NCBI RefSeq assembly: GCF_024582815.1 | Contig: NZ_CP102099.1 | Coordinates: forward strand, 2,790,001 to 2,854,000 | Source: Acinetobacter colistiniresistens | Lineage (GTDB): Bacteria > Pseudomonadota > Gammaproteobacteria > Pseudomonadales > Moraxellaceae | Length of the DNA stretch: 64,000 nucleotides | Reading direction: 5' to 3' | In this document: piece after piece, positions 9,825 through 15,538 of the stretch | Layout of the letters: every line of letters begins with the position of its first letter | How positions within the stretch are numbered: position 1 is the stretch's first letter | The notes under the pieces: generated by a model | Told to the model about the DNA's origin: nothing | Database searches by the model: none | The model's input: only the letters and a program-made list of their open reading frames with translations | Made by a program: the position numbers and the translations under genes

Positions 9825-10639
9825 TTAGCCTTGTACCCAAATGCCATATTCACCGACAAAATAAGTATGGGTATTCACAATTTTCAGATTATAAACCGTC
9901 GTGGTTACATAACCCTCCCCCTCATCCCATTGGATAGTTTCTGGATTTACCCAATCACCCTGACTAAAACCATGAAAATGGGCATTGGCTCGGTCTTCTT
10001 CTGGAAGCTGCTCAAGCAAGTCTTCTTTCCAGTGTGTATTTTTATTATATAATTTCCTTAAATTCGGATTATCTTTAATCATCTCATTCCAAGAAATGAT
10101 ATTACCCGTAAATAAATCAACAGCAAATCCATAAAAACTAGATTCTGAACCGTAATTCGGTACCATGCCTATATTTTTATCAGAAGCTGTATAAATCTCA
10201 GCATGTGGTTTTGTATCATAACCATCAAAATTTAGACTATATTTATTTCCATTTTTATCTACAACTACATCCTGATTAGTAATTTGATCAGCAGCAACCC
10301 ATCCTTTCCCTTCTACCCAAAATGGATGTTCAGGAATAACAGTAAATTGTACTGATGGCAGTACAATACCACTAAGATTAAATTTTTTAATACCTCTTTT
10401 CTAATTTTCCTTCTTTCAAAGAAATCTAAGTTAGGATCAATCCAGTAATCAAACTCCATGAAAATCACAGACTGATTTTCTGTTTTTATGACTTTCATTA
10501 CAACTTGATAACTTTGCTGTCCTGTCACAGTATCAGCACTGAGTACCCGATCTCCGATTTGAATATCTTGTATTTGAACTAACCCACTCTCTGTATGCAC
10601 CAATGTACCGCCAACGAAACCAACTGCATCCTTTTTCAT
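9825..10639 (-). pseudogene. Remnant of a polymorphic-toxin Hint (intein-like) domain
   Basis: Two minus-strand frames together read as one Hint domain. The first (10639 down to about 10390) has GTLVHTESGLVQIQDIQIGDRVLS. The second, in another frame from about 10390 to 9825, has TVIPEHPFWVEGKGWVAADQ and ends NTHTYFVGEYGIWVQG. Canonical pretoxin Hint domains start with a catalytic Cys (CFVAGTLV) and end VHN. Here the Cys is Gly (VGFVGGTLV) and the end is VQG, so self-cleavage should be lost. The frames rejoin if one A is added to the run at 10383-10388. No upstream Rhs, RHS-like or secretion module and no downstream toxin is present. It is an orphan remnant, or could be a fragment shuffled from a larger toxin locus. 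Confidence 0.8.
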
Positions 10640-10858: not shown

Positions 10859-11896
10859 TCAATTTCTCATCTGTTCAGCAACATCCAATAAGGCTTGAGC
10901 TGTTTTATCCCAACCCAGGCAACCATCCGTAACCGACTGGCCATAAGTCATATCACAGGAAATTTTTTGATTACCATCAACCAGATGGCTTTCAATCATC
11001 ACACCACGCACTTTAGATTCCGCACGTTCTGCAATAATTTGCTGTAAAACCTGTGGTTGCAGTAGTGGATCTTTACCGCTGTTACCATGACTACAATCAA
11101 TCACCAATGCCGGCAATTGCTTATGCTTGAAATGCATCGCTTGAATCGAAGCCAAATCATAGTTGGTACCCTGATTTGAGCCACGTAAAATTAAATGTGG
11201 TAATGGATTACCTTCACTATGCAAAATTGCAGGTAGACCTTGTTGAGTCATCCCCAAGAATTGATGGCCATGCAGTGCTGATTGAATTGCATCCAAAGCA
11301 ATCTGAATCGAGCCATCTGTACCATTCTTGAAGCCAATGCTGTATGGCATATGGCTTGCTATTTCACGATGAATTTGTGATTCACTGGTACGTGCTCCAA
11401 TTGCCCCCCAAGCCAATAGGTCGTCAAAATAACCTGTCGCCATTGGGCTTAAAATTTCACTGGCAATCGGTAAGCCTTTTTCAATCAGTTGTAAGTAAAG
11501 CTGACGCGATTTTTCTAAACCGAGTTGTAAGTCTGATGATCCATCTAAATTTGGATCGTATAAGAAACCTTTCCAACCCACCGTGGTACGCGGTTTTTCG
11601 ATATATGCACGCATAACAAGGAAAATCTGATCTTTAACCTGTTCTTGTAATTGTTGGAGGCGATCAGCATATTCTAGTACTGCGATAGGATCATGAATTG
11701 AGCAAGGACCTGTAATCACCATCAAGCGATGATCATGTCCTGATAAAATATTCTGAATCGTTTGACGATGTTTTGAAATTTGCTGCGCTAAAGTTGCAGA
11801 CAAGGGATACTGCGCTTTGAGTTGTGATGGCAAGCTAAGCATTGATTCTTTTGTATGTGTTTGTGGTTGTGTCAAAGCAGTATTTAAAGCATTCAT
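10859..11896 (-). CDS. aroG: 3-deoxy-7-phosphoheptulonate (DAHP) synthase, class I
   Basis: Condenses phosphoenolpyruvate and erythrose-4-phosphate, the first step of the shikimate pathway. The 345 residues fit the AroF/G/H type. Visible motifs are VITGPCSIHD (metal-binding Cys near 63), RAYIEKPRTTVGWKG, DLLAWGAIGARTSESQ, GFKNGTDG and IDCSHGNSGKD. The ATG at 11896 has AAAGGA seven bases upstream. I cannot say which aromatic amino acid inhibits it, so the symbol is a family label. It is a single gene preceded by about 300 bases of leader with two aromatic-rich short ORFs and a terminator, which points to control by attenuation. Confidence 0.93.
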   Translation of the reverse strand: MNALNTALTQPQTHTKESMLSLPSQLKAQYPLSATLAQQISKHRQTIQNILSGHDHRLMVITGPCSIHDPIAVLEYADRLQQLQEQVKDQIFLVMRAYIEKPRTTVGWKGFLYDPNLDGSSDLQLGLEKSRQLYLQLIEKGLPIASEILSPMATGYFDDLLAWGAIGARTSESQIHREIASHMPYSIGFKNGTDGSIQIALDAIQSALHGHQFLGMTQQGLPAILHSEGNPLPHLILRGSNQGTNYDLASIQAMHFKHKQLPALVIDCSHGNSGKDPLLQPQVLQQIIAERAESKVRGVMIESHLVDGNQKISCDMTYGQSVTDGCLGWDKTAQALLDVAEQMRN

Positions 11897-11909
11897 TTTC
11901 AATTCCTTT

Positions 11910-11931
11910 GGACTGGCCTTCTTCGCAGTCC
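11910..11931 (-). promoter_or_regulatory. Hairpin next to the aroG ribosome-binding site
   Basis: GGACTG and CAGTCC pair around a 10-base loop. The stem ends two bases before the AAGGA of aroG and begins six bases after the stop of the second aromatic short ORF. It lacks a T run, so an effect on translation initiation is more likely than termination. That role is inference. Confidence 0.5.
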
Positions 11932-11937
11932 TATCAT

Positions 11938-12030
11938 TTATTTGAGCAAGTGTGATCTAAGCGATGTTGATTTTTTTGCAAAGTAAAACCAAGAAATCTT
12001 GCTAAAATATGAATAGTTAAATGTGTACAT
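11938..12030 (-). CDS. Second aromatic-rich leader peptide before aroG (30 aa)
   Basis: A 30-codon ORF with an AGGAG element seven bases before its ATG, better than that of many genes here. The peptide begins MYTFNYSYFSKISWFYFAKK: ten of the first 17 residues are Tyr, Phe or Trp. It lies after the leader terminator and before aroG, so it is made only on read-through transcripts. Ribosomes stalling on Phe/Tyr/Trp codons here would cover the region upstream of the 11910-11931 hairpin. Leader-peptide function is inferred from composition and place; it could also be a tiny structural protein. Confidence 0.6.
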   Translation of the reverse strand: MYTFNYSYFSKISWFYFAKKSTSLRSHLLK

Positions 12031-12063
12031 GGTATTTCTCCTAAAATCTTGATTGTTAAAGCA

Positions 12064-12095
12064 TAAAAAAACCTGATCGGTGTTGCCGATCAGGT
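12064..12095 (-). terminator. Attenuator terminator in the aroG leader
   Basis: On the minus strand ACCTGATCGG, a 5-base loop, and CCGATCAGGT are followed by seven T. It lies between the aroG promoter and the gene, so it cannot serve an upstream gene and must act within the leader. Upstream segments GTTGCC and CCTGAT (about 12135-12146) could pair with GGCAAC and ATCAGG in the stem and act as an antiterminator. This matches the design of trp/phe-type attenuators. Confidence 0.75.
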
Positions 12096-12145
12096 ATTAA
12101 CTGGTTGGGCAACCTTTTTGCTGCCCGAAACGCATCAGGCAACGA

Positions 12146-12199
12146 TCAATATTGCCAAAAGTAAAAGTATGCGTTGGTGTTTACAGTATGCTTTAACAT
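12146..12199 (-). CDS. Aromatic leader peptide of the aroG attenuator (17 aa)
   Basis: A 17-codon ORF encoding MLKHTVNTNAYFYFWQY. Six of its last eight residues are aromatic, in the order Tyr-Phe-Tyr-Phe-Trp-Gln-Tyr, ending at TGA. The end lies 51 bases upstream of a strong terminator hairpin. It begins about 40 bases downstream of a good promoter. Control codons placed at the 3' end of a short ORF ahead of a terminator are the hallmark of ribosome-mediated attenuation in pheA, trp and his leaders. All three aromatic amino acids are represented, suggesting that starvation for any one relieves termination. The ribosome-binding site is weak, which lowers confidence a little. Confidence 0.7.
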   Translation of the reverse strand: MLKHTVNTNAYFYFWQY

Positions 12200-12237
12200 A
12201 TTTATTTCAAATATCTAAAAAACGGTGTCTAACTATT

Positions 12238-12266
12238 AAATTACGCACTATTTCAGCATTTGACAA
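12238..12266 (-). promoter_or_regulatory. Sigma-70-type promoter for the aroG leader
   Basis: On the minus strand TTGTCA (12261-12266) and TAATTT (12238-12243) are separated by 17 bases. Transcription would start near 12230, just before the first leader peptide. Confidence 0.6.
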
Positions 12267-12513
12267 GCACTTTTTATATTTTTTTAATCCTATCTTCAAA
12301 ACCTTAAAGTTTGACCTTTCGCCAGTTCCCCCATAGAATAGTGTAAAAATAAACCAATTTGAGATTACGCCAATGAAGTAAGTTCTATTTCCATCATCAA
12401 AGTTCATTTTTCTTTTTGATGTGCAAAATAGACTTAGCTATCGTTTAGCGCTTCCTTATTCTAAAACTTATCTCGATTTCTCTATTTTGCATATCCTGTT
12501 TATGAGGTTTCTT

Positions 12514-14088
12514 ATGACTCAACAGGCATGTATTATTTCCAACCTATCCCTTGAATTAGCCCAGCAAAAACTGTTTGATCGGCTTAGCTTTCAACTTCCA
12601 TTACATCAGTTCACAGGACTGGTCGGACGCAATGGTCAAGGCAAATCAGTATTGATGTCTCTTCTGCATGAACAGACAAAATTCAAGCTACCCTATTCAG
12701 GCCAAATTTCTTGGCAATGCCCACATCAATATTTAACTCAGCTTCAGCGCGTACAAGCAGATACTATCGCTCAAGCTTTACATATTGAAGATTTAAACGG
12801 ATGCTTTGAGCGAATCCAGCAAGGTACGGCAACTTTTACAGATTATGATCAGGTTGAAGGGCTTTGGCATTTACCCACAGAATGGCAGCAGCTTTTGCAA
12901 AGTGCAGGCTTACCTATAAATCTTGATACACCCATTCAGCATTTAAGCGAGGGTCAAAAAACCAAACTCGCGCTATGCCGTTTATTTTTACTCAAAGATC
13001 ATTATCTGCTGCTCGATGAACCAAGCAATCACTTAGATAACCAAGGACGTGAATGGCTGATCCAACAAATGTCTCAACACCGAATGGGTGGACTGATCAT
13101 TAGTCATGACCGACAATTATTGGCACATGTACAAGGCATTCTTGCTTTAAATCAGTTAGGTTTACACTATTACGGTGGTAATTATACGCTTTATCAACAG
13201 CAGCATCAGTTACAGGTCGAAGCCTTATCCCAAGCTGTTCAGCAAGAAAAACGCGAGTTAAAACAACTAAAAGAGCAACAGCATCAAAGCCAGATGAAAG
13301 CGCAGAAACGTCAAAAAGCTGGTGAAAAGTTAAGAGCCTCTGGATCTCAAGCCCCCATCTTACTAGATGCCAAGAAAGAACAATCCGAGCAATCTCTTTC
13401 TCACCTCAGAAAACAACAGAGCAAACAGCTTGCAGATGCCAAAGATGAGTTACAGCAAAAGCAAACGCAACTGGAACATCTTAAATCACAATTTTTTGAG
13501 TTTACCCAAAAGACGGTTAAATCAGGTGAGATTTTACGCTGCCAGCAATTACAACTTGCTTACGCAAAAACACAACCAATTGATCTAGCGCTATCGACTG
13601 GTGAAAAATTGCATTTAAGTGGCGCAAATGGTACCGGTAAGTCCACTTTACTCAAAACCCTTCAAGGCTTAATCCCGCCACTTGCAGGAGAGATTTATTG
13701 CAAAGTAAGCTCTGTTTATCTGGATCAGAATCTTTCATTACTCAATGAAAGTCTATCTGCCGTTGAATATTTATGTGGTATTAACCCCGATCTGACTGAG
13801 CAACAAGCACGCACCCTCTTGGGCAACTTACAAATTCGTAGAGATAAAGCCCTTAGCTCTATAAGAAATTTAAGTGGTGGTGAACGCTTAAAAGTCGCTT
13901 TGCTTGCGTTGAAACAACAAGCTGTTGAACTATTACTTTTAGATGAACCAGAAAACCATCTTGATATTGAATCTCGCGAGTTACTCGCTCAAGCTATTCA
14001 CTCATTTCATGGTGCAGTGATATTGGTATCCCATGATGAAAATTTTGTTGGAGAGTGTGGGATTACAGCATCGTATCTGTTGGGATAA
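12514..14088 (+). CDS. ABC-F family ATPase
   Basis: A 524-residue protein with two ABC ATPase domains and no membrane segment, the ABC-F layout of ribosome-associated factors. Domain 1 has Walker A GRNGQGKS, signature LSEGQKTKLAL and Walker B LLLDEPSNHLD. A charged coiled-coil linker rich in Gln and Lys (about residues 225-340) follows. Domain 2 has GANGTGKST, LSGGERLKVAL and LLLLDEPENHLD. The subfamily (Uup, YheS, or a resistance type) cannot be assigned by eye. The frame is open to 12421, but GAGG before the ATG at 12514 and the domain start there decide. It is a single gene, divergent from the aroG leader. Confidence 0.88.
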   Translation: MTQQACIISNLSLELAQQKLFDRLSFQLPLHQFTGLVGRNGQGKSVLMSLLHEQTKFKLPYSGQISWQCPHQYLTQLQRVQADTIAQALHIEDLNGCFERIQQGTATFTDYDQVEGLWHLPTEWQQLLQSAGLPINLDTPIQHLSEGQKTKLALCRLFLLKDHYLLLDEPSNHLDNQGREWLIQQMSQHRMGGLIISHDRQLLAHVQGILALNQLGLHYYGGNYTLYQQQHQLQVEALSQAVQQEKRELKQLKEQQHQSQMKAQKRQKAGEKLRASGSQAPILLDAKKEQSEQSLSHLRKQQSKQLADAKDELQQKQTQLEHLKSQFFEFTQKTVKSGEILRCQQLQLAYAKTQPIDLALSTGEKLHLSGANGTGKSTLLKTLQGLIPPLAGEIYCKVSSVYLDQNLSLLNESLSAVEYLCGINPDLTEQQARTLLGNLQIRRDKALSSIRNLSGGERLKVALLALKQQAVELLLLDEPENHLDIESRELLAQAIHSFHGAVILVSHDENFVGECGITASYLLG

Positions 14089-14221: not shown

Positions 14222-15538
14222 GGGACTGTTCTAAATTTTGTGTAAGTACTTAATTTTCATTTATCCTTCAGAGGATAATTACAAAAGGTACTTCACATGG
14301 ATGAAGCAACAATCAAAAGTATGGCTGCCGAATTGGCTAAAGGTCTAAAAACACCAGAAGACTTAAACCAAATGACAGCAGTCTTTAAAAAATTCATGAT
14401 TGAAACTGCACTCAATACTGAACTTTCAGACCATCTCGGTTATGAAAAGCATCAGTCCAGGAAAGGCTCAAATAGCCGTAATGGGTTTAGTTCTAAAACC
14501 ATTACAACTCAAGATGGACAACTGGCTTTAGATATTCCCCGTGATCGAGAAGGTTCATTTGAGCCACAAATTATCAAAAGCACCAAACACGCATCACCAG
14601 TATGGATGACCAAATCCTCTCACTGTATGCAAAAGGAATGACTAATAGGGAAATTGTAGCCTTCTTCAAAGAAATGTACGATGCCGATGTCTCAGCATCT
14701 CTCATCAGCAAAGTTACCGATGCTGTGATTGAGCAAGTGACTGAGTGGCAAAATAGAGCCTTAGATAGCCTTTATCCTGTTGTCTATCTTGACTGTATTG
14801 TTGTCAAAGTCCGTCAGCACTCCAATGTGATTAACAAGTCCGTATACCTTGCTTTAGGCATCAATATGGATGGACAAAAAGAATTACTGGGTATGTGGAT
14901 TGCTCAGACAGAAGGTGCCAAATTCTGGCTGTCAGTCATGACAGAGCTAAAAAATCGAGGAGTACAGGATATTCTTGTTGCCTGTGTAGATGGATTAAAA
15001 GGCTTTCCTGACGCGATAGCCTCCGTTTACCCTCATACTGATATTCAACTGTGTATCGTGCATGTTGTACGCAATAGCCTGAGATTTGTAAGCTGGAAAG
15101 ACTACAAGGCTGTTACCTCGGGTCTGAAAGCGATTTATCAGGCAAGTACAGAGGAAAATGCTTTAAAGTCCCTAGACATCTTCTGTGATCAATGGAATCA
15201 CCAGTATCCCAAAATTGGAGAATCCTGGCGGGCCAATTGGGAAAATATCCGAACGATCTTTAGCTATCCAGCCGAAATACGTCATGCAATTTATACAACA
15301 AATGCGATTGAGTCGTTGAATAGCGTAATACGCCATTCAACGAAGAAGAGGAAAATCTTTTCATCTGATGACTCAGTAAAGAAGGTCATTTACTTAGCAA
15401 CATCAAATGCTGCGAAGAAATGGACGATGCCAATTCAAAATTGGCGTTTAGCAATGAATTGGTTTACGATTCAGTTCGATGATCGATTAAAAGATCATTT
15501 ATAAAAAATGGAACTTACACAAAATAATTTACAGGCTC
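14222..15538 (+). mobile_element. IS256-family insertion sequence
   Basis: A 1317-base element with one transposase region, imperfect terminal inverted repeats that share CTGT and TTTTGTGTAAGT, and an 8-base target duplication CATAAAAT (14214-14221 and 15539-15546). The length, the repeats and the DDE transposase all fit the IS256 family; the duplication length is typical. The left end is close to the receptor's original 3' end, showing that the element jumped into the last codons of the receptor gene. Intact duplications mean insertion is recent or at least undisturbed. I do not name the isoform because that needs a search. Confidence 0.92.
14297..15504 (+). pseudogene. IS256-family transposase, interrupted by a frameshift
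   Basis: Two overlapping frames make one mutator-type transposase of about 402 residues. The first (14297-14641) begins MDEATIKSMAAELAKGLKTP and runs to REGSFEPQIIK. The second (from about 14580 to 15504) continues with MDDQILSLYAKGMTNREI. The catalytic residues look intact: Asp in VVYLDCIVVK, Asp in ACVDGLKGFPDA and Glu in TTNAIESLN. Adding one A to the run at 14576-14579 joins the frames as IIKKHQTRITSMDDQ, so a one-base deletion is the likely cause. No classical slippery heptamer is present and IS256 members do not normally use frameshifting, so this copy is probably inactive or the base call is wrong. Confidence 0.85.

What the first reader, a model, noticed from the sequence alone, without database searches (positions are those of the whole stretch)
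12064..12266. Attenuator with an aromatic leader peptide upstream of a DAHP synthase gene
Seen: promoter TTGTCA-17-TAATTT, a 17-codon ORF ending AYFYFWQY, then a perfect 10-bp hairpin with seven T, all ahead of aroG on the minus strand. Segments GTTGCC and CCTGAT after the ORF can pair with the terminator stem. Known: pheA, trp and his leaders work by ribosome stalling on control codons. Inference: shikimate entry is tuned by charged tRNA-Tyr, -Phe and -Trp together, not by one amino acid. Such a triple-aromatic leader for a DAHP synthase gene is, to my knowledge, uncommon.
Basis: partly seen in the sequence, partly recalled or inferred. Interest (0 to 1): 0.75.

Follow-up and report, generated by a model that had tools for sequence, protein, structure and literature searches.

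The report
Double aromatic leader before DAHP synthase
Before the gene that starts aromatic amino-acid synthesis, these bacteria carry two short peptide genes packed with tyrosine, phenylalanine and tryptophan codons, apparently a two-step switch that turns the gene on when those amino acids run low, and a Pseudomonas RNA filed as an 'sRNA' looks like the same switch.

Summary
The window has a promoter, a 17-codon ORF (MLKHTVNTNAYFYFWQY) and a 10-bp terminator ahead of a type I DAHP synthase gene. The element recurs in every Acinetobacter locus that I read (67 of 67) and scores in 169 of 175 Acinetobacter genomes; in the six others only a ~50% identical DAHP synthase was found. Tyr, Phe and Trp codons are kept by synonymous change. 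Mutually exclusive pairings fit a classical ribosome-mediated attenuator.

First, a second aromatic ORF (11938-12030, MYTFNYSYFSKISWFYFAKKSTSLRSHLLK, strong Shine-Dalgarno) lies between terminator and gene; it is intact in 66 of 67 loci and followed by a conserved hairpin directly before the aroG Shine-Dalgarno. Second, the element looks like the counterpart of Rfam RF00627 'P15', a Pseudomonas sRNA: all 14 P15 hits in 194 genomes of the order lie directly upstream of a DAHP synthase, 11 of 14 with a second aromatic ORF. Leader-bearing and leaderless DAHP synthases fall on the two sides of one branch (100/100).

Stage 1 is well supported. Stage 2, probably acting on aroG translation, is a hypothesis; its sign and mechanism are not shown. 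No experiment was available. New variant of a known kind.

The parts
12238..12266 (-). promoter: TTGTCA (12261-12266), 17-nt spacer, TAATTT (12238-12243)
   Evidence: pattern conserved in 59 of 67 loci
12146..12199 (-). leader ORF1, MLKHTVNTNAYFYFWQY, stop TGA; no clear Shine-Dalgarno
   Evidence: no SD-like motif in 56 of 67 loci
12152..12175 (-). segment 0 inside ORF1: AACGCAT (12169-12175) and GGCAA (12152-12156, Trp-Gln codons), can pair with segment 1
12129..12143 (-). segment 1: GTTGCCTGA (12135-12143) with loop ATGCGTT (12129-12135), pairs with segment 0 or segment 2
12120..12128 (-). segment 2: TCGGGCAGC, pairs with segment 1 or segment 3
12107..12114 (-). segment 3: GGTTGCCC, pairs with segment 2 or with GGCAAC of the terminator (antiterminator)
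12082..12087 (-). segment 4: GGCAAC, part of the terminator 5' arm and loop, partner of segment 3
12065..12095 (-). intrinsic terminator: 10-bp stem (12071-12095) and T run
   Evidence: C-G to U-A change on both sides in 5 of 49 rows
12038..12042 (-). Shine-Dalgarno AGGAG of ORF2
   Evidence: SD motif in 67 of 67 loci
11910..11931 (-). hairpin GGACTG...CAGTCC between ORF2 stop and aroG Shine-Dalgarno
   Evidence: a stem found in 62 of 63 loci; 6 nt after the stop in 55 of 62, 3 nt before GGA in 53 of 62
11904..11909 (-). Shine-Dalgarno AAAGGA of aroG
10859..11896 (-). aroG-type DAHP synthase (type I, 345 aa)

Best explanation
A two-stage, translation-read switch for one DAHP synthase isozyme. 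Stage 1 (supported by comparative anatomy, not by experiment): a ribosome translating ORF1 stalls at Tyr, Phe or Trp codons when their charged tRNAs are scarce. It covers segment 0, so 1 pairs with 2 and 3 with 4, the terminator cannot form and aroG is transcribed. When the ribosome reaches the ORF1 stop it covers segment 1; 2 pairs with 3, the terminator forms, and a short leader RNA is released. Stage 2 (inferred): transcripts that pass the terminator carry ORF2, a second aromatic-codon ORF that ends next to, or inside, the aroG start. Ribosomes on ORF2 then set aroG translation, most likely so that stalling at its aromatic codons leaves the hairpin folded and the aroG start open. The same amino-acid signal would be read twice, first for transcription and then for translation. 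The unit is old: Rfam 'P15' appears to be the terminated leader of the orthologous gene in other Pseudomonadales.
For: Stage 1: ORF1 plus terminator in 67 of 67 loci; pN/pS 0.19 in frame; both exclusive structures are kept (98.3% and 87.1% of cells paired, 0 and 1 of 500 shuffles at least as high, slid versions at most 45.5% and 50%); with a ribosome placed on the Y, F or W codon the antiterminator forms in 64, 64 and 63 of 67, with it at the stop in 26 of 67; the loop part of GGCAAC in the terminator is kept in at least 90% of 49 rows although a terminator does not need it. Model hits in 169 of 175 Acinetobacter genomes (one each, but for a weak second hit in two), and none in the six where this gene was not found. 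Stage 2: ORF2 intact in 66 of 67 with SD in 67 of 67; aromatic codons 8.74 of 30 against 4.26 shuffled, n 66; pN/pS 0.36 against 1.23 and 1.09 in other frames; hairpin geometry fixed; in six genomes with a longer ORF2 the stop is exactly 22 nt inside aroG; stall-state SD more open than stop-state in 50 of 60, less in 4; the same ORF2-hairpin-SD order in 7 of 7 family-f21 loci. Family link: 14 of 14 RF00627 hits precede a DAHP synthase; the Acinetobacter model finds 12 of the 14 P15 loci at the same place; one-branch split 100/100, with the leaderless rows checked.
Against: No transcript, reporter or starvation data. Equilibrium folds without a ribosome give the antiterminator in 45 of 67, and at the stop still in 26 of 67, so the off state is not cleanly reproduced. 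Much of the pairing is invariant; the measures that count pairs or pair types do not stand out from shuffles (93 and 93 of 500; 14 and 415 of 500). The outer part of the 0:1 pairing is formed in only 56.7% of aligned cells. ORF1 has no clear Shine-Dalgarno in 56 of 67 loci. For stage 2, native ORF2 does not hide the aroG SD better than shuffled ORF2 (0.52 against 0.47 accessible; native lower in 26 of 60); the stall-minus-stop difference beats shuffles only weakly (0.138 against 0.065, 23 of 34, p 0.014 on related sequences); the six overlap genomes show no trend between free and stalled. RNAalifold found no consensus structure on the ORF2 alignment. P15 scores 21.3 bits on the window, far below its gathering score of 70, was not found at E up to 1 in a scan of eight other Acinetobacter loci, and the Acinetobacter model, at strict filters, had found none of the P15 loci in the order.
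Confidence: 0.7

Rival explanations
1. Only stage 1 regulates; ORF2 is a translational-coupling cistron whose ribosomes hand over to aroG (termination and re-initiation). Its aromatic codons would then damp, not raise, aroG under starvation, or matter little.
For: ORF2 ends close to the aroG start in the forms seen: across a hairpin of fixed spacing, 29 nt before the ATG in L152-L154 and 2 nt before it in L165, or 22 nt inside aroG in six genomes.
Against: Aromatic enrichment of ORF2 is kept in diverged peptides, which is hard to explain if stalling there lowers the enzyme that is needed.
Confidence: 0.25
2. ORF2 works at transcription through Rho: a ribosome stalled or moving in ORF2 hides or exposes a Rho site before aroG.
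For: A second ORF without a second intrinsic terminator fits Rho-type leaders in general (recalled); one search lists no other minus-strand terminator in 11000-12700.
Against: No Rho site was tested for. The fixed geometry between ORF2 stop, hairpin and aroG SD points to translation initiation.
Confidence: 0.12
3. ORF2 is an arrest peptide of the TnaC kind that senses a free aromatic amino acid through the nascent chain.
For: Non-aromatic residues are also kept in much of Acinetobacter (YFSN or YFSK, tail with R and LK).
Against: In other lineages mainly aromatic density is kept, and the distance from the aromatic block to the stop varies (ORF2 lengths 27-34 aa in the named loci, the frameshifted L079 apart).
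Confidence: 0.1
4. The region is a small RNA gene (as 'P15' is filed) and the ORFs are incidental.
For: P15 is listed as an sRNA in Rfam and counted among sRNAs detected by Livny et al. (passage of PMC2375449).
Against: Frame-specific codon conservation, position before DAHP synthase in 14 of 14 and exclusive pairings.
Confidence: 0.03

Closest known systems
trp, phe and his leaders of enterobacteria (ribosome-mediated transcription attenuation; recalled, trp and phe also in a passage of PMC11802643)
   Same: leader ORF with control codons, chain of exclusive hairpins, intrinsic terminator
   Different: three aromatic amino acids at once; gene is DAHP synthase; a second aromatic ORF follows the terminator
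Corynebacterium glutamicum aroR leader of aroF (Neshat 2014, seen only as described in passages of PMC11802643 and PMC4046766)
   Same: leader-peptide attenuator of a DAHP synthase gene
   Different: Phe-Tyr-Phe codons, responds to Phe and not to Tyr; different phylum; no second leader mentioned in the passages read
uORFC-13-1 of Acholeplasma (passages of PMC8632094)
   Same: uORF before a terminator and aroF, proposed attenuator
   Different: phenylalanine leader; one uORF in the passages read
Rfam RF00627 P15 (Pseudomonas sRNA)
   Same: same place before the orthologous DAHP synthase, aromatic ORF1, terminator, an aromatic ORF2 in 11 of 14
   Different: window scores 21.3 bits against a gathering score of 70; P15 loci are GC-rich and their ORF1 is longer
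Salmonella mgtCBR tandem attenuators (abstract of PMC3641672)
   Same: two leader ORFs in one transcript
   Different: there the two ORFs read different signals (ATP, proline); here both would read aromatic supply
mgtQ (abstract of PMC8092293) and two-leader ermB (search listing of PMC8274638)
   Same: short ORF upstream controls expression of the next gene, for mgtQ its translation
   Different: mgtQ has 8 codons with ribosome-destabilising residues; ermB responds to erythromycin

Membership tests
ribosome-mediated transcription attenuator (trp/phe/his type) | translated leader ORF with codons of the pathway's end products | tested here: met
   all three aromatics in the ORF1 core in 67 of 67; pN/pS 0.19. 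Conservation implies translation; it was not measured
ribosome-mediated transcription attenuator (trp/phe/his type) | intrinsic terminator before a gene of that pathway | tested here: met
ribosome-mediated transcription attenuator (trp/phe/his type) | mutually exclusive antiterminator set by ribosome position | tested here: met
   model only, and the off state is imperfect in 26 of 67
ribosome-mediated transcription attenuator (trp/phe/his type) | readthrough rises on starvation for the coded amino acids | not testable with these tools
   no expression data reachable
Rfam RF00627 P15 | score at or above the gathering score of 70 bits | tested here: not met
   21.3 bits on the window; none at E up to 1 in eight other Acinetobacter loci. 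Not filed as a P15 member; the relationship rests on gene, place and layout
Rfam RF00627 P15 | position upstream of the orthologous DAHP synthase | tested here: met
   14 of 14 hits, 10 of them over the gathering score; tree
translational attenuator (erm type), for ORF2 | downstream start sequestered, freed when the ribosome stalls in the leader | tested here: inconclusive
tandem attenuators (mgtCBR type) | two leader ORFs that both regulate | tested here: inconclusive
   two conserved ORFs are present; regulation by the second is not shown
metabolite riboswitch | match to a described aptamer family | tested here: not met
   no Rfam match at gathering score in the window

The most novel reading that the evidence does not exclude
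A dual-lock attenuator, ancient in Pseudomonadales: the same aromatic-tRNA charge signal is read twice in one mRNA, first by ORF1 for transcription termination and then by ORF2 for translation of the same DAHP synthase, and the orphan 'sRNA' P15 is the discarded product of the first lock.
Probability: 0.45. Interest if true: 0.75.

Novelty: new variant of a known kind. Interest (0 to 1): 0.6.

Why it matters
It would assign a function to an Rfam family (P15) that the two papers in which I found it named describe only as an sRNA or a possible riboswitch (passages of PMC2375449 and PMC2527527), and would show how bacteria of this order set entry into the shikimate pathway. A leader whose two ORFs read the same signal at two levels would be a rare design; PMC3641672's abstract calls the mgtCBR case, with two different signals, singular. 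It is directly testable in the harmless laboratory strain Acinetobacter baylyi ADP1 and is of use for aromatic-compound engineering.

Tried and rejected
Considered and rejected: riboswitch (no Rfam match at gathering score); a second intrinsic terminator after ORF2 (the hairpin has no T run; one search lists none there); further copies of the element in the genome (weak second hits in G039 and G131 look like ordinary terminators; in its own genome the other hits have E of 0.3 or more). RNAalifold on the ORF2 alignment gave no structure, probably through misaligned indels; the hairpin was therefore counted per sequence. The idea that ORF2 codons hide the aroG SD by direct pairing, seen by eye in the A. 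baumannii-calcoaceticus group, did not hold across the genus. The genus-wide ORF2 pattern search matched 147 of 175 genomes, but some matches lie elsewhere in the genome, so it is not used as a count; instead the leader was read in 20 genomes that had no match to that pattern at the leader, with positions taken. One search's look upstream of the paralogues used the wrong side for L080 and L088; one search repeats it with the right strand and adds the leaderless rows of the tree that had not been scanned. Literature: ten searches listed no paper on an attenuator of an Acinetobacter DAHP synthase or on P15 as one; word finds in PMC11472050 and PMC5094136 (A. baumannii RNA papers; no aroG or leader peptide) and in PMC3460626 and PMC3349714 (P. 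aeruginosa transcriptomes; no P15 or PA1750) gave nothing. Supplements and most subscription papers were out of reach. Rows dropped before counts: 13 non-Acinetobacter loci (L066-L078); alignments A1, A2 and A3 use 49, 48 and 29 of the 67 sequences, near-duplicates and some hard cases left out by me; ORF2 statistics leave out L055, L061, L062, L063, L065 or L079 where frame, alignment or start is unclear (the n is given each time).

Full report
What is in the window. On the minus strand, a sigma-70-like promoter (TTGTCA-17-TAATTT) is followed by a 17-codon ORF ending NAYFYFWQY, a run of complementary segments, and a perfect 10-bp terminator. The next gene is a type I DAHP synthase that passes the curated cut-offs of TIGR00034 and NF009395. 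After its stop comes a hairpin, GGACTG...CAGTCC, directly before the aroG Shine-Dalgarno.

Conservation in Acinetobacter. A search for the gene returned 79 loci, 66 of them Acinetobacter. With the window, 67 loci were read. ORF1 and terminator are in 67 of 67 (66 by pattern, L038 placed by hand). ORF2 is intact in 66 of 67; L079 has a frameshift. The promoter pattern is in 59 of 67. A covariance model of ORF1's end to the terminator hits 169 of 175 Acinetobacter genomes. In the six others only a DAHP synthase 49-51% identical to this one was found (four of the six are 65-91% complete, two 99-100%). Leader and gene thus occur together. In the other 243 genomes drawn from the order this model found nothing at strict filters.

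Coding evidence. In the ORF1 core pN/pS is 0.19, against 5.28 and 0.61 in the other frames. For the ORF2 core it is 0.36, against 1.23 and 1.09 (distinct rows only, 30 of 67 and 33 of 62). Tyr, Phe and Trp are each in the ORF1 core in 67 of 67. In ORF2, Tyr and Phe are in 62 of 62 and Trp in 61 of 62 of the loci that were aligned; L061, L062, L063, L065 and L079 were left out, and one search shows no Trp in L061, L063 and L065. Both ORFs carry more aromatic codons than their base composition gives (5.94 against 2.54, n 67, and 8.74 against 4.26, n 66).

Switch anatomy of stage 1. Five segments can pair in a chain: 0 (inside ORF1) with 1, 1 with 2, 2 with 3, 3 with the terminator's own GGCAAC. 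In the antiterminator arrangement (1:2 and 3:4) 98.3% of cells pair, against at most 45.5% when slid. In the terminator arrangement (0:1, 2:3, terminator) 87.1% pair, against at most 50% (49 of the 67 sequences). Much of this is invariant sequence, which says nothing for or against pairing, and the counts of varying pairs and of pair types do not stand out from shuffles. Changes on both sides occur in helix 1:2 (7 cells), in the terminator (C-G to U-A in 5 of 49 rows) and in the outer 0:1 helix (22 cells). That outer helix, between the loop of 1:2 and ORF1's AACGCAT region, forms in only 56.7% of cells at fixed columns. Searched without fixed columns, a loop complements its own ORF1 better than swapped ones do (27 distinct loops, mean score 14.85 against 12.54; 0 of 20,000 permutations); relatedness of the sequences inflates this. 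With a model ribosome on the Tyr, Phe or Trp codon the antiterminator forms in 64, 64 and 63 of 67; at the stop codon in 26 of 67; with no ribosome in 45 of 67. The direction fits, but the fully off state is not cleanly predicted by equilibrium folding.

Stage 2. The ORF2 stop, the hairpin and the aroG Shine-Dalgarno have fixed spacing: a stem was found in 62 of 63 loci, 6 nt from the stop in 55 and 3 nt from GGA in 53 of these. The hairpin keeps its pairs through changes such as GGGCTG/CAGCCC and GGGT/ACCC. I then read 20 genomes in which the strict ORF2 pattern gave no match at the leader, plus L082 and L083. ORF1 was found in 22 of 22 and an aromatic ORF2 of at most 50 codons in 19 of 22, the frameshifted L115 among them. 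The other three (L116, L124, L126) have a 55-codon aromatic ORF2. In these three and in L111, L128 and L129 ORF2 runs out of frame into aroG, and its stop is exactly 22 nt inside the gene each time. ORF2 is therefore tied in place to the start of aroG translation. How it acts is not shown. Folding gives a more open aroG start with a stalled ribosome than with one at the ORF2 stop (0.50 against 0.36; 42 of 63 up, 9 down; for the SD alone 50 of 60 up, 4 down). But native ORF2 hides the SD no better than shuffled ORF2, the excess over shuffles is small, and the six overlap genomes show no trend.

Relation to P15. An Rfam scan at low threshold put RF00627, 'Pseudomonas sRNA P15', over 12070-12170 at full length: 21.3 bits, gathering score 70, E 0.011 to 0.027. 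Its consensus can be read as Tyr-Tyr-Phe-Gly-Tyr-Trp codons, then hairpins, then a terminator. RF00627 hits 14 of 194 genomes of the order, 10 over the gathering score, and in 14 of 14 a DAHP synthase match begins 98-323 nt downstream on the same strand. Reading these loci shows ORF1 forms such as ...GYFFYGYWFSQRRA and, in 11 of 14, an ORF2 such as MNTTYYRYYRNSDWRFSS... (not found in L155, L156 and L157). In 7 of 7 family-f21 loci ORF2 stops 44-48 nt before the ATG, with a predicted hairpin and then the Shine-Dalgarno, as in Acinetobacter. L165, outside the P15 hits, has both ORFs, the second ending 2 nt before the ATG; in L158, L159, L162 and L167 no ORF2 was found. In reverse, the Acinetobacter model finds 12 of the 14 P15 loci at the same place: the best 11 matches, E 0.002 to 0.09, and L141 at E 2.8. 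A tree of 40 DAHP synthases splits leader-bearing (25) from leaderless (15) by one branch with 100/100 support. I assigned the labels; one search confirms that none of the 15 shows an aromatic ORF together with a terminator, though some have an aromatic ORF alone. The deepest forks are weak, the rows are those nearest to the window's protein, and the family-f20 leaders rest alone. The families carry no names in this tool; P15 was described in Pseudomonas. P15 was counted among sRNAs detected by Livny et al. (passage of PMC2375449), which fits a released short leader. PMC2527527 (passage) suggested a riboswitch.

Known background. Attenuators of DAHP synthase genes are known or proposed in C. 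glutamicum and Acholeplasma (passages of PMC11802643, PMC4046766, PMC8632094). Tandem leader ORFs are known for mgtCBR, reading two different signals (abstract of PMC3641672). What appears new here is the triple-aromatic leader in Acinetobacter and its relatives, the second leader for the same signal, and the reading of P15. My ten paper searches listed none of these, but they cover open-licence full text only.

Verdict. The finding is larger than reported: an old leader shared across five families, with a second aromatic ORF in at least four of them (f1, f21, f36, f43). Stage 2's function is the open, testable question.

Noticed in passing
window 12070-12170 (-); L130-L143: Rfam RF00627 'P15 sRNA' appears to be the terminated leader of a DAHP synthase attenuator in other Pseudomonadales.
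   Followed up: yes
L111, L116, L124, L126, L128, L129: In six Acinetobacter genomes ORF2 overlaps the aroG start out of frame, with the stop always 22 nt inside the gene.
   Followed up: partly
window about 11938-11955 and 11885-11896: The usual ORF2 tail in the genus (AACGCTCAAATAAAT) resembles the first aroG codons of the overlap lineages (NAQIN in another frame), as if the aroG start had been duplicated or moved. By eye only.
   Followed up: no
G000:C1:2614853-2615884 (L080): The genome has a second TIGR00034 DAHP synthase, about 50% identical, with no aromatic ORF or terminator seen upstream; in the six leaderless Acinetobacter genomes and six other genomes of the family only this kind was found.
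   Followed up: partly
window 12146-12199 against L130, L132, L135, L136: ORF1 lacks a clear Shine-Dalgarno in 56 of 67 Acinetobacter loci but several P15 loci have GGAG before it, so basal leader translation may differ.
   Followed up: no
L079 (also L115): One Acinetobacter genome has a frameshift in ORF2 while ORF1 and terminator are intact; real change or assembly error not known.
   Followed up: no
window 12421-14088 (+): Divergent gene for an ABC-F ATPase-like protein, below the curated cut-off of each of the 25 families shown, shares the upstream region.
   Followed up: no
window 14297-15504 (+): Two overlapping frames that look like one broken insertion-sequence transposase (naming from recall).
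   Followed up: no
window 10313-10639 (-): Short ORF that looks like part of a HINT/pretoxin-type domain (naming from recall), just downstream of aroG.
   Followed up: no
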